Shown piece by piece: positions 19,632-22,065 of a stretch of 64,000 bases of DNA (position 1 is the first letter of the stretch; every line of letters starts with the position of its first letter). Source of the stretch: Cytophagales bacterium. Lineage in GTDB: Bacteria > Bacteroidota > Bacteroidia > Cytophagales > Cyclobacteriaceae. The translations under genes were made by a program, and so were the position numbers. The notes beneath the pieces were generated by a model. The model was not told the origin of the DNA. It worked only from the letters and a program-made list of their open reading frames with translations, and ran no database searches. Location: the NCBI GenBank assembly GCA_017303795.1, contig JAFLBR010000005.1:186001-250000 (forward strand). The letters are read 5' to 3'.

Positions 19632-20066
19632 TTACTTTTTGCTAAGGGCTTTTTCGCGTTTCACGATTTTGGCTAACGTGCTTTCTCTCAGGATTTTTAA
19701 CGTTTCATCGCGCACCCCTAAAAAGCTGTCGCGTATGCCACAGGTTTTTTCATCCCGGCACTCTTCACAGGCTTCGTAATAGTTAAGCGATACACAAGGA
19801 AGCATGGCAATGGCTCCGTCCATCAGGCGGATTATCTCAATTAGGTTTACATCTTCGGGTTTTTTAAAAAGATAATATCCGCCTCCTTTGCCTTTTTTAC
19901 TGTTAAGCACTTTTGCATTGCGTAACTCCAACAAGATGGCTTCCAGAAACTTTTTAGGAATATGTTGCTTTTCGGCAATTTCCTGAATATGGACGGGGCC
20001 TTGCTGATACCTTTCGGCCAGATAAACAAGGGCATGAATGGCGTATTTGCACTTCTTGGAAAGCAT
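19632..20066 (-). CDS. Rrf2-family transcriptional regulator with possible Fe-S cysteines
   Basis: ATG at 20066 gives a 144-residue protein with the standard Rrf2 N-terminus (MLSKKCKYAIHALVYLAE); a longer in-frame start at 20150 adds 28 residues of non-family sequence. The winged helix is followed by a cysteine cluster, C91, C100, C103 and C109, close to the three-Cys Fe-S site of IscR/NsrR. The protein probably senses iron-sulfur status, NO or peroxide. Its target is likely the downstream peroxiredoxin through the dyad at 19595. Confidence 0.92.
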   Translation of the reverse strand: MLSKKCKYAIHALVYLAERYQQGPVHIQEIAEKQHIPKKFLEAILLELRNAKVLNSKKGKGGGYYLFKKPEDVNLIEIIRLMDGAIAMLPCVSLNYYEACEECRDEKTCGIRDSFLGVRDETLKILRESTLAKIVKREKALSKK

Positions 20067-20197
20067 GACCGCCAAGATATACTTTTTGTCTATAATTTTA
20101 CTTTTGCTTAACAATAAACCTTGCTGAAGGATAGAAGTATCCCAATGCATATGGGGGAAGTGATTTTAATTTTTTTGTCGTCTTAATTTATTTAGTT

Positions 20198-20653
20198 GTG
20201 ATTGTCTCGAAACCTCGTTCGCAAACCCTTATCTCGTTTATCTTATTTCTAATCTTAACTTTTCTGGTATTTGGGTTGAATGTAACGGCCATACTGCGCG
20301 GCACGTATGCATGGTATAATCTTGCAATTGCCGGCATCTTATTGCCGCTGGGGCTTTTTGTCCTTTACAGGATTTTTATCCGATACAAAATAATCCGGGC
20401 GGGCGATAATCGGGTAGAAGTTGTTTACCCGGTATTAAGAAAGACGCATGCCTACACGATAAAACAGATTGCCAGTTGGCGCGAGAGCATAGTAAAAACC
20501 GGTAAAAGTTCCGTTTTCAAAGAACTTGAAATAGTTTTTGATAAACACTTTCGCCTAACTATCGGACAAAAAGAACATACCGAATACGATAAGTTGGTTC
20601 ACTACCTGCAGCGAAAAGTTCCAAGCAAAAAGGTAACAGCAGCAGGTAAGTAG
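20198..20653 (+). CDS. Hypothetical two-helix membrane protein with PH-like C-terminus
   Basis: A GTG start at 20198 yields 151 residues. Two hydrophobic segments (about residues 10-31 and 40-60) are followed by a strand-rich cytoplasmic part (NRVEVVYPVLRKTHAYTIKQIASWRE, FKELEIVFDKHFRLTIGQKEHTEYDKL), the layout of small bacterial PH-like (bPH2/DUF304-type) proteins. I cannot assign a function. It is divergent from the Rrf2 gene and is followed by the promoter of a tRNA-Leu gene. Confidence 0.65.
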   Translation: MIVSKPRSQTLISFILFLILTFLVFGLNVTAILRGTYAWYNLAIAGILLPLGLFVLYRIFIRYKIIRAGDNRVEVVYPVLRKTHAYTIKQIASWRESIVKTGKSSVFKELEIVFDKHFRLTIGQKEHTEYDKLVHYLQRKVPSKKVTAAGK

Positions 20654-20658
20654 CACCA

Positions 20659-20689
20659 TTGATAAAGTACCAAAACCTTTTTACTTTTG
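20659..20689 (+). promoter_or_regulatory. Promoter of tRNA-Leu(GAG)
   Basis: TTG at 20659-20661 and TACTTTTG at 20682-20689 are 20 bp apart, matching the Bacteroidetes promoter pattern. The mature tRNA begins 53 bp after the -7 box. Confidence 0.65.
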
Positions 20690-20742
20690 CCGTCCCTCAT
20701 TCAACAGGTTGTTCTTTTTAGCAGCAGGCTGAATAGTAAAAT

Positions 20743-20824
20743 GCCCAGGTGGTGAAATTGGTAGACACGCTACTTTGAGGGGGTAGAGCCGCAAGGTGTG
20801 CTGGTTCGAGTCCAGTCCTGGGCA
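20743..20824 (+). tRNA. tRNA-Leu, anticodon GAG
   Basis: Acceptor GCCCAGG (20743-20749) pairs with CCTGGGC (20817-20823), discriminator A at 20824. The D-arm TGGTGAAATTGGTAGACAC is followed by anticodon stem CTACT/GGTAG with loop TTGAGGG, so the anticodon GAG is at 20777-20779. A class II variable arm and T-arm GGTTCGAGTCC complete the tRNA. CCA is not encoded. The 3' end is duplicated 270 bp downstream, with a GIY-YIG ORF in between. Confidence 0.95.
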
Positions 20825-20826
20825 CA
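20801..20826 (+). repeat. tRNA 3'-end direct repeat, copy 1
   Basis: The last 26 bp, CTGGTTCGAG followed by TCCAGTCCTGGGCACA, cover the T-arm, acceptor strand and two further bases. The same 26 bp recur at 21074-21119. Base 20826, the end of the repeat, is also the A of the GIY-YIG start codon. The arrangement is that of the target-site side of an element inserted at a tRNA 3' end. Confidence 0.85.
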
Positions 20827-21071
20827 TGTTTTTTGTGTACGCAATCAGTAGTATCGAAAGAAACTACATTTATGTTGGACTAACCGATAACCCTGAAAGG
20901 AGGATAGGTCAACATAACTCAGGATATGAAAAAACTACTCGGGCGTATGCCCCGTTTTTGATTTTGCTGATTGAGTCTTTCCAGATACGGAGTGAAGCCC
21001 GTGTTCGAGAAAAATATCTAAAGTCAGGTGTTGGCAAAGAATATTTGAGAGAGCTTCAAAAAAGGCCTTGA
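20826..21071 (+). CDS. Small GIY-YIG nuclease-domain protein embedded in a tRNA-end duplication
   Basis: ATG at 20826 gives 81 residues that are essentially a single GIY-YIG domain: FVYAISSIERNYIYVGLTDNPERRIGQHNSG holds the VYAI...YIYVG core and the catalytic Arg in ERRIGQH, followed by EKYLKSGVGKEYLRE. A start ten codons upstream is an artefact because those codons are the tRNA T-arm. This UPF0213/COG2827-type domain is common in Bacteroidetes. The ORF fills the space between two copies of the tRNA 3' end, which suggests a homing-type mobile unit. Confidence 0.88.
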   Translation: MFFVYAISSIERNYIYVGLTDNPERRIGQHNSGYEKTTRAYAPFLILLIESFQIRSEARVREKYLKSGVGKEYLRELQKRP

Positions 21072-21073
21072 GT

Positions 21074-21119
21074 CTGGTTCGAGCCTGCCTGTCGGCAGAC
21101 AGGTCCAGTCCTGGGCACA
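21074..21119 (+). repeat. tRNA 3'-end direct repeat, copy 2, split by a 20-bp palindrome
   Basis: CTGGTTCGAG (21074-21083) and TCCAGTCCTGGGCACA (21104-21119) are identical to copy 1 (20801-20826) but are separated by 20 inserted bases. It begins two bases after the GIY-YIG stop codon. No 5' half of a tRNA precedes it, so it is a fragment and not a gene. Confidence 0.85.
21084..21103. repeat. 20-bp palindromic insert in tRNA-end copy 2
   Basis: CCTGCCTGTCGGCAGACAGG interrupts the repeat in the T-arm. It can fold as CCTGTC/GACAGG or as CTGCC/GGCAG, two overlapping stems. Short GC-rich palindromes of this kind occur dispersed in Bacteroidetes genomes; the mechanism of spread is not known to me. 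Confidence 0.65.
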
Positions 21120-21123
21120 ACAG

Positions 21124-21157
21124 ATTCAAAATTTGAAATTCTCAATTTTGAATTGAG
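21124..21157. repeat. Two overlapping AT-rich hairpins before tRNA-Leu(CAG)
   Basis: ATTCAAAATT (21124-21133) pairs exactly with AATTTTGAAT (21144-21153). CTCAATT (21141-21147) pairs exactly with AATTGAG (21151-21157). The two stems share bases and exclude each other. They end four bases before the tRNA. Either processing signal, small repeat or chance in AT-rich sequence. Confidence 0.4.
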
Positions 21158-21160
21158 TTA

Positions 21161-21244
21161 GCCGAAGTGGTGAAATTGGTAGACACGCACGTTTCAGGGG
21201 CGTGAGCCGTAACAGGTGTGCGGGTTCGAGTCCCGCCTTCGGCA
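21161..21244 (+). tRNA. tRNA-Leu, anticodon CAG
   Basis: Acceptor GCCGAAG (21161-21167) pairs with CTTCGGC (21237-21243), discriminator A at 21244. Anticodon stem CACGT/GCGTG holds loop TTCAGGG with CAG at 21195-21197. A class II variable arm and GGTTCGAGTCC T-arm are present; CCA is not encoded. It is intact, 40 bp after the split repeat. Confidence 0.95.
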
Positions 21245-21250
21245 CATATT

Positions 21251-21350
21251 GAAAAGTTGTAGGGTTCTCCCGATAGTTATCGGGACGCCTTCGACACTTA
21301 TTAAAAGTTGTGCAGGTTCTCTCGGCTATCGGGACGCCTAAGACGCTTAA
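21251..21350. repeat. Two imperfect ~50-bp tandem units with TCCCGATA palindromes
   Basis: The unit AAAAGTTGT..GGTTCTC..TATCGGGACGCCT..GACnCTTA occurs at 21251-21300 and 21302-21350 with several mismatches. The first unit contains the perfect hairpin TCCCGATA-GT-TATCGGGA (21268-21285); the second is decayed. They lie between a tRNA and a terminator and have no coding potential. Confidence 0.6.
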
Positions 21351-21354
21351 TTTT

Positions 21355-21390
21355 AAAGTCACTTGTTAAAATCGGGTGACTTTATTTTTT
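21355..21390 (+). terminator. Terminator of the tRNA-Leu region
   Basis: AAAGTCAC (21355-21362) pairs with GTGACTTT (21376-21383), followed by ATTTTTT. It closes the tRNA-Leu/GIY-YIG transcript 64 bp before the cytochrome gene. Confidence 0.75.
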
Positions 21391-21453
21391 CATTCGGATC
21401 TGATTTAAAATCAGGCATATTGTTTGGTAATGCAATAATCTCTAATCAACACC

Positions 21454-21876
21454 ATGAAGCGAACTGCAATCTTAATTTTATTCCTGATCTCGATGTCCTT
21501 CTTTTCTTTCGATCAAAGTTACGATCTGAAAGCAAGTATGGAACGCGGTAAATCTATTTACGAGGCTCAGTGCATGTCGTGCCACATGGCCGAAGGCGAA
21601 GGGCTGCCCGGTGTTTTTCCGCCTGTGGCCAACTCCGATTATCTGACAGATAAAAACCGGTTGGTTAAAGTTGTGTTGAAAGGCGTACGTGGCGAAATGA
21701 AAGTAAATGGAACAGACTATAATGGTGAGATGACCGGCTTTCAGCTTTCCGATCAGGAAACTGCTGATGTATTAAATTATATTGGTAACACGTGGGGCAA
21801 TAAGGCTGAGGCAATAAAGCCTGCAGATATTCAATCCGCATTAAAGGCCACCACCAAAGACTACCAACCTTACTGA
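21454..21876 (+). CDS. Small c-type cytochrome
   Basis: The 140-residue exported protein has a signal peptide (cleaved near residue 20) and a single heme site C40-x-x-C43-H44 in EAQCMSCHMAEGEGLPG. The likely Met ligand is in NGEMTGFQLSDQETADVLNYI. The class I cytochrome c fold is complete, and length is typical of single-domain periplasmic carriers that serve terminal oxidases or dehydrogenases. There is no redox enzyme beside it, so its partner is unknown. Confidence 0.92.
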   Translation: MKRTAILILFLISMSFFSFDQSYDLKASMERGKSIYEAQCMSCHMAEGEGLPGVFPPVANSDYLTDKNRLVKVVLKGVRGEMKVNGTDYNGEMTGFQLSDQETADVLNYIGNTWGNKAEAIKPADIQSALKATTKDYQPY

Positions 21877-21894
21877 TCAGCCACGAAATAAAAA

Positions 21895-21915
21895 GGCCAT
21901 CCAATCTGGATGGCC
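21895..21915 (-). terminator. Terminator on the minus strand for the 41-residue ORF
   Basis: GGCCATCC (21895-21902) pairs with GGATGGCC (21908-21915) around a 5-nt loop. On the + strand it is preceded by AAAAA, so on the minus strand it is followed by a T-run. The orientation points to a minus-strand transcript coming from 22065. Confidence 0.6.
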
Positions 21916-21939
21916 CTGACTTTGAAATTCGGTTACGGT

Positions 21940-22065
21940 TTAAGCCACAACTTCTTTACGGCTCCACGCACTGGCTTTTGGCTTCAACTCGCTATGGAGT
22001 TTTACCACAGAGGAAAAGAACACAAAAAAGAAAGTTAAAACGGCTGTCATGCAAAAAAGTATCAT
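21940..22065 (-). CDS. Small single-span membrane protein candidate, 41 residues
   Basis: ATG at 22065 on the minus strand opens a 41-codon frame ending with TAA at 21940-21942. The product begins MILFCMTAVLTFFFVFFSSVV, one strongly hydrophobic helix, followed by a charged tail (KLHSELKPKASAWSRKEVVA). A minus-strand hairpin with a T-run lies 25 bp after its stop, in the right orientation to end this transcript. I know no family for it. The membrane helix and the matched terminator make it more than a chance frame. Confidence 0.5.
   Translation of the reverse strand: MILFCMTAVLTFFFVFFSSVVKLHSELKPKASAWSRKEVVA

What the first reader, a model, noticed from the sequence alone, without database searches (positions are those of the whole stretch)
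20743..21119. GIY-YIG ORF packaged between two copies of a tRNA-Leu 3' end
The last 26 bp of tRNA-Leu(GAG) recur 2 bp after the stop of an 81-residue GIY-YIG protein. The start codon begins at the last base of copy 1, so the ORF uses the whole space. This looks like a homing-type endonuclease that inserts at tRNA genes and rebuilds the tRNA end, leaving a duplication. From memory, GIY-YIG proteins in Bacteroidetes databases often carry tRNA-like N-terminal artefacts, as here, which would mean that this is a recurrent, under-described arrangement.
Basis: partly seen in the sequence, partly recalled or inferred. Interest (0 to 1): 0.72.

Follow-up and report, generated by a model that had tools for sequence, protein, structure and literature searches.

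The report
Tiny nuclease element targeting tRNA genes
A roughly 300-base DNA element carrying one very small DNA-cutting enzyme sits beside a bacterial tRNA gene, between the working tRNA and a leftover piece of the same tRNA that is split by a short palindrome, and the same layout recurs beside tRNA genes in many related bacteria, which suggests a very small and little-described mobile element.

Summary
Between intact tRNA-Leu(gag) and a second copy of its 3' end lies an 81-aa GIY-YIG ORF, but the second copy is split (10+16 nt) by a 20-bp palindrome. Relatives found by protein alone sit next to tRNA genes: 95 of 103 distinct loci have a same-strand tRNA within 500 bp, none only an opposite-strand one; weaker homologues 2 of 12. 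In 78 of 89 evaluated loci the far side of the ORF carries a partial copy of the same tRNA; 72 of these 78 hold an insert of at least 12 bp. Palindromic inserts fall in tRNA loops or junctions in 53 of 62 cases, against 53% of positions. Both orders (tRNA-ORF, ORF-tRNA) occur. Congeners without the element show insertion. Best reading: a minimal homing-type element that inserts at tRNA genes, keeps one tRNA intact, and tags the spare piece with a palindrome that goes with the enzyme lineage. Closest known: phage GIY-YIG endonuclease SegB, reported to cut inside tRNA genes (PMC13096335). Cutting by this protein and the palindrome's role are inferred. Nine searches of an open-licence library gave no description.

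The parts
20743..20825 (+). intact tRNA-Leu(gag), the occupied target gene
   Evidence: ARAGORN; Rfam RF00005 (20743-20824)
20826..21071 (+). 81-aa GIY-YIG nuclease ORF incl. stop
   Evidence: PF01541; conserved residues in alignment A1
21074..21083 (+). first piece of the partial tRNA copy (CTGGTTCGAG, T-arm)
   Evidence: alignment (L001)
21084..21103 (.). 20-bp palindrome P in the T-arm of the partial copy
   Evidence: once in the genome by the strict pattern, twice by the looser one
21104..21119 (+). second piece of the partial tRNA copy (3' end)
   Evidence: in congener G308 (L172), which has no element, a flank similar to the one after this piece follows the tRNA directly
21161..21245 (+). 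neighbouring tRNA-Leu(cag); in congener G312 (L187) the element sits after this gene instead

Best explanation
A minimal free-standing homing-type element. Shown by sequence comparison: a unit of about 300 bp (GIY-YIG ORF + partial tRNA copy + palindrome) is present at tRNA genes and absent from the same place in congeners; it leaves one tRNA intact and a partial copy of that tRNA on the far side, in the 3' form (tRNA-ORF-partial) or the mirror 5' form (partial-ORF-tRNA); the partial copy is in most loci split by a palindrome, usually in a tRNA loop; units can occur in tandem. Inferred: the nuclease cuts conserved tRNA-gene loops of an empty allele (T-loop or D-loop), repair copies the element in with short tRNA homology as arms, and the palindrome in the spare copy breaks the cut site and/or the homology through which the element would be lost. 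The palindrome class tends to travel with the enzyme lineage.
For: Association: 95 of 103 distinct loci with same-strand tRNA <=500 bp, 0 opposite-only, 8 none; weaker homologues 2 of 12. Partial copies in 78 of 89 evaluated loci, 72 of the 78 with an insert >=12 bp; in three of the other six (L008, L050, L027) the palindrome is visible although the aligner missed it. Position: of 62 palindromic inserts 53 lie in loops or junctions against 53% of positions; 17 of 25 in the T-arm for the 3' form, 29 of 37 in the D-arm for the 5' form. No element at the homologous place: L172 for the 3' form, L242 and L245 for the 5' form; GIY within 500 bp of the tRNA in 4 of 28 and 4 of 19 scorable fetched loci, each set including the query genome itself. 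Another tRNA used in a congener: L187 after Leu(cag), its partial copy ending with the Leu(cag) 3' end. Arrays: L148, five full ORFs at 450 bp. Palindrome class on the protein tree: 3 changes over 66 labelled of 81 rows, shuffled mean 11.6, minimum 9. A second element in the same genome, at tRNA-Met, has another palindrome found once in the genome. Conserved GIY-YIG residues in 33 proteins. SegB, a phage GIY-YIG enzyme, is reported to cut within tRNA genes, with motif RAWTSGAAC in 23 of 83 sites (PMC13096335, passages); its reverse complement matches the tRNA T-loop consensus (consensus recalled, comparison mine).
Against: No cleavage data. The intact tRNA in occupied alleles still holds the presumed cut site. 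The protein has only the catalytic domain. Palindromes of this class also lie away from GIY ORFs and tRNAs (64 of 84 sites in the stretches I chose), so they are not confined to the element. 11 of 89 evaluated loci lack a significant tRNA copy. No homologue in the phage or plasmid collections at E<=1e-4, so the carrier between cells is unknown.
Confidence: 0.66

Rival explanations
1. Campbell-type integration: a circle carrying the ORF and a palindrome-split tRNA piece recombines with the chromosomal tRNA by host recombination; the nuclease is not the driver. Cross-over right or left of the palindrome gives the two mirror forms.
For: Geometry of both forms and the tandem arrays fit; L088 shows units at a non-tRNA site that, read by eye, shares about 11 bp with the tRNA 5' end, with a long host duplication.
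Against: No recombinase-like ORF in the unit. The palindrome mostly lies in the arm next to the host end (T-arm in 17 of 25 for the 3' form, D-arm in 29 of 37 for the 5' form), which would need cross-over in the shorter stretch of homology. No circle was looked for.
Confidence: 0.2
2. Two unrelated things: a homing nuclease at tRNA genes, and a dispersed palindromic repeat moved by another factor that lands in spare tRNA pieces.
For: 64 of 84 sampled palindrome sites are not within 400 bp of a GIY ORF or tRNA; spare copies with two palindromes (L012, L022, L041, L055).
Against: 72 of 78 spare copies carry an insert; in the window's genome the palindrome is found once or twice and the tRNA-Met element's palindrome once; palindrome class follows the protein tree; palindrome and GIY co-occur across genomes: 41 of 49 palindrome-positive against 61 of 247 negative genomes have the GIY profile, within-family permutation p=0.02.
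Confidence: 0.22
3. Host-serving gene: a GIY-YIG protein co-transcribed with tRNAs that acts in tRNA-gene repair or tRNA turnover, kept beside tRNAs by selection.
For: Strict same-strand orientation (95 same, 0 opposite only).
Against: Patchy presence at homologous places (4 of 28, 4 of 19), a different tRNA in a congener (L187), a decayed copy (L241), tandem arrays (L148).
Confidence: 0.06

Closest known systems
Phage SegB (T4/T6), free-standing GIY-YIG homing endonuclease
   Same: GIY-YIG nuclease gene next to tRNA genes of many isotypes in phages; reported to cut inside tRNA genes; its nuclease activity needed for tandem amplification of a tRNA-segB unit, with microhomology (PMC13096335: passages; section 10)
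   Different: Phage-borne and larger (size recalled); no partial tRNA copy with palindrome in the parts I read; no homologue of the window protein in 50,697 phage records at E<=1e-4
UPF0213-type stand-alone GIY-YIG proteins (PDB 1zg2, 1ywl)
   Same: Closest solved relatives by profile, E=5.7e-11 and 2.4e-9; similar size
   Different: Hypothetical proteins; their genomic context was not tested here
REP/RAYT (REPIN) systems
   Same: Short palindrome associated with one small DNA-processing protein
   Different: RAYTs are REP-associated tyrosine transposases (abstracts in the listing; HUH class recalled); here a GIY-YIG domain, a tRNA target, few palindromes per genome
tRNA-targeted integrative elements
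   Same: Insertion at a tRNA with part of it duplicated at the far end (definition recalled)
   Different: No recombinase-like ORF; unit about 300 bp; the duplicate is split by a palindrome; insertion at either end of the tRNA

Membership tests
GIY-YIG nuclease superfamily | GIY-YIG domain above curated cut-off | tested here: met
   PF01541 59.2 bits against cut-off 22.6
GIY-YIG nuclease superfamily | conserved motif residues, central Arg and later Glu | tested here: met
   A1 (33 rows): G18, R26, H30, E62 invariant; Y5, Y16, E50 at 90% or more; which Glu is catalytic was not determined
Free-standing homing endonuclease element | insertion polymorphism: alleles with and without the element at one site | tested here: met
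Free-standing homing endonuclease element | cleaves the empty allele at or near the insertion site | not testable with these tools
   needs a cleavage assay
Free-standing homing endonuclease element | spreads by gene conversion | not testable with these tools
   needs a cross
Free-standing homing endonuclease element | sequence match to a homing endonuclease family | tested here: inconclusive
   phrog_5123 'homing endonuclease with GIY-YIG motif' E=5e-4 over 31 residues; TIGR01453 far below its cut-off
REP/RAYT | HUH Y1 transposase (recalled) | tested here: not met
   only PF01541 in the ORF
REP/RAYT | palindrome dispersed in the genome | tested here: inconclusive
   1-2 copies here; up to 30 matches counted over both strands in another genome (G007)
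tRNA-targeted integrative element | own site-specific recombinase | tested here: not met
   ORFs of at least 50 aa between the tRNA copies: the GIY-YIG and an overlapping 64-aa antisense frame
Intron in a tRNA gene | interrupts the tRNA coding sequence | tested here: not met
   tRNA-Leu(gag) is continuous; Rfam gives only two tRNAs in 20000-22000

The most novel reading that the evidence does not exclude
A new kind of minimal mobile element: one GIY-YIG domain (about 80 aa) plus its own cognate palindrome, about 300 bp in all, which places itself at tRNA genes and places (or is marked by) the palindrome in tRNA-gene loops; a nuclease-palindrome pair that works like REP/RAYT but without a transposase, with ORF-less satellite arrays (L167) as its passengers.
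Probability: 0.3. Interest if true: 0.9.

Novelty: new variant of a known kind. Interest (0 to 1): 0.77.

Why it matters
If autonomous, a unit of about 300 bp with an 81-aa protein would be far smaller than typical insertion sequences (size comparison recalled). It would extend SegB-like targeting of tRNA genes from phages to bacterial chromosomes, give a reason for GIY-YIG ORFs beside tRNAs in Bacteroidota and in several candidate-phylum MAGs (L010, L015, L028, L032, L052; mis-binning not excluded), and tie a class of palindromes to one enzyme family. The sites with and without the element found here make the cut site directly testable.

Tried and rejected
Palindromes in general sit in hairpin loops: not supported. 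Away from GIY and tRNA, stems of 5 bp or more flank 17 of 61 sites against 24% of random positions (Mann-Whitney p=0.33); at 7 bp or more there is a small excess, 5 of 61 against 2.8%. My early idea that the palindrome belongs only to the element: weakened, 64 of 84 sampled sites are elsewhere (stretches chosen by me from the capped list). Cross-phylum transfer from L026/L084: withdrawn, they are the same contig; near-identical loci were found and removed before the count of 103. Phage or plasmid carrier: no match. A replicate in Patescibacteria did not run. My first loop count (57 of 62 against 51%) let inserts slide to a loop but not the background; one search repeats it without sliding (53 of 62 against 53%) and with sliding on both sides (57 of 62 against 61%).

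I saw listings and starts of abstracts only, apart from passages and section 10 of PMC13096335 and passages of PMC1564403. The library holds open-licence papers only.

Rows dropped or special: one search was given 99 loci and evaluated 89; eight had no tRNA in reach (L019, L030, L034, L067, L069, L083, L088, L099) and two too little flank (L070, L108). L034 has a stretch of N inside a tRNA-like sequence after the ORF; in L019, L030 and L069 the ORF or its flank lies near a contig end; L083 is inside an array with the tRNA 934 bp away, L099 has one 765 bp away; L067 has a tRNA-like 3' end with a palindrome after its stop but no intact tRNA in the stretch., 71 found no cloverleaf string for 9 of 77 loci, so the 62 inserts come from the rest. 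Tree: 81 of 89 loci (frames with stops or under 60 aa left out); palindrome classes were set by a script and, for ten rows, by hand (seven cut by the aligner; L008, L027, L050 where it missed the insert), and rows of no class were left out (66 of 81 used).

Full report
Observation. tRNA-Leu(gag) (20743-20825) is followed at once by the ATG of an 81-aa GIY-YIG ORF (20826-21071; PF01541 E=5e-16). After the stop, the end of the tRNA recurs, but as 10 + 16 nt around a 20-bp palindrome at 21084-21103. In the window's genome the strict palindrome pattern is found once, the looser one twice; the second place (L109) has no GIY or tRNA in its 3.1-kb stretch.

Recurrence. A protein-only scan of genome contigs gave 66 relatives. 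With the four of the window's genome and the best-scoring loci of two searches of 296 phylum members (about 30 loci fetched each), near-identical loci removed, there are 103 distinct loci: 95 have a tRNA on the same strand within 500 bp, 0 only on the opposite strand, 8 none. Isotypes: Leu 58, Arg 20, Ser 6, Ala 4 and seven others with one each. Weaker homologues (12 loci from seven palindrome-positive genomes) behave otherwise: 2 of 12. Isotype follows the protein tree (14 changes, shuffled mean 28.25).

Anatomy. The nearest tRNA was aligned to the far side of the ORF, with 20 shuffles of the flank as control. 78 of 89 evaluated loci have a significant partial copy, and 72 of those 78 an insert of at least 12 bp. 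In three of the other six (L008, L050, L027) the palindrome can be read in the sequence. The copy is the 3' part when the tRNA is upstream (37 loci) and usually the 5' part when it is downstream (41). Of 62 palindromic inserts (at least 15 bp, perfect stem at least 5) 53 lie in loops or junctions, against 53% of positions in the aligned parts; with sliding allowed for both, 57 of 62 against 61%. 17 of 25 are in the T-arm in the 3' form and 29 of 37 in the D-arm in the 5' form. Related loci are not independent. Thus the palindrome usually sits in the first arm counted from the end still joined to the host flank. Some spare copies hold two palindromes (L012, L022, L041, L055).

Insertion. In congener G308 (L172) the tRNA-Leu(gag) runs directly into a flank similar to the one that follows the spare copy in the window; the BLAST pieces meet over the shared tRNA end, and G319 shows the same. 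G303 (L175) has the same gene order without the ORF, its short spacer not clearly similar. In G312 (L187) the element is after tRNA-Leu(cag) and its spare copy ends with the Leu(cag) 3' end. For the 5' form, L242 and L245 lack what G029 (L085) has. Of 30 loci fetched for the first site 28 were scorable and 4 have a GIY within 500 bp of tRNA-Leu(gag): the window itself, L170, L171, and L187, whose element is at the neighbouring tRNA. Of 20 fetched for the second, 19 were scorable and 4 have one, G029 itself included. These were the best-scoring loci, not a census, and that all are the same site was checked by alignment only for the loci named.

Arrays and decay. L148 has five full ORF units at 450 bp and part of a sixth. 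L167 has nine units of about 77 bp, tRNA 5' half plus palindrome, without an ORF. L241 has an ORF with stops and the palindrome kept. L088 has two units at a non-tRNA site that, read by eye, shares about 11 bp with the tRNA-Leu 5' end, with a long host duplication.

Palindrome and enzyme. Across 296 genomes the palindrome is in 49 and the GIY profile (E<=1e-15) in 102: 41 of 49 against 61 of 247 (Fisher p=9e-15; genus level 39 of 42 against 31 of 97; within-family permutation p=0.02, or 0.0025 with the single-protein set). The within-family figure is the fairer one, since relatives are not independent. Seven of the other eight palindrome-positive genomes have weaker GIY matches; palindrome-negative genomes were not searched at that lower threshold. 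Palindrome class changes 3 times on the protein tree (66 labelled rows, shuffled mean 11.6); the tree has few columns and many open forks, and ten labels were set by hand. A second element in the same genome, at tRNA-Met, has the palindrome CCCGAAAGCTTTCGGG, found only there. Against an exclusive link: of 84 palindrome sites in 60 fetched stretches, 13 lie within 400 bp of a GIY, 12 of a tRNA, 20 of either, and sites away from both are not clearly in hairpin loops.

Mechanism. Most likely a homing-type nuclease whose target is the tRNA gene itself. SegB of phage T6, another GIY-YIG enzyme, is reported to cut inside tRNA genes, with a motif RAWTSGAAC in 23 of 83 sites, to lie near tRNAs in many phages, and to be needed for tandem tRNA-segB amplification with microhomology (PMC13096335). 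The reverse complement of that motif fits the tRNA T-loop consensus (recalled), which is where the palindrome mostly sits in the 3' form. I infer that the palindrome marks or breaks the cut site in the spare copy. The open difficulty is that the intact tRNA still has the site.

Standing. The protein is a GIY-YIG superfamily member (met). Membership among homing endonuclease elements is met for insertion polymorphism and untested for cleavage and conversion. It is not a RAYT, not an integrase element and not a tRNA intron (tested, not met). No description was found in nine searches of the open-licence library.

Noticed in passing
L088 (G294 C1 about 64 kb): Two GIY-palindrome units at a non-tRNA site that, read by eye, shares about 11 bp with the tRNA-Leu 5' end, flanked by a long duplication of host DNA; a possible ectopic insertion that shows how units enter.
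   Followed up: partly
L167:1500-2320 (G236): Nine units of about 77 bp, tRNA-Leu 5' half plus palindrome, upstream of an intact tRNA-Leu(caa), without an ORF; looks like a non-autonomous satellite array.
   Followed up: partly
L004 (G000 C1 about 365 kb): Another GIY ORF of the same genome lies between a tRNA called Met by ARAGORN and a near-complete second copy split by a different palindrome found once in the genome.
   Followed up: partly
L002 and L003 (G000 C1): Two further GIY ORFs next to tRNA-Ser/Arg without a detectable tRNA copy but with other imperfect palindromes beside them (read by eye).
   Followed up: no
L067:1600-1650: Right after the stop of a GIY ORF, a tRNA-like 3' end split by a palindrome, with no intact tRNA in the 3.3-kb stretch.
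   Followed up: no
window 21278-21349: Two copies of a TATCGGGACGCCT-type repeat after tRNA-Leu(cag), next to a CCCGATAGTTATCGGG palindrome.
   Followed up: no
L110, L115-L117, L162: Dispersed copies of the palindrome sit inside other repeated intergenic sequences of those genomes (read by eye).
   Followed up: no
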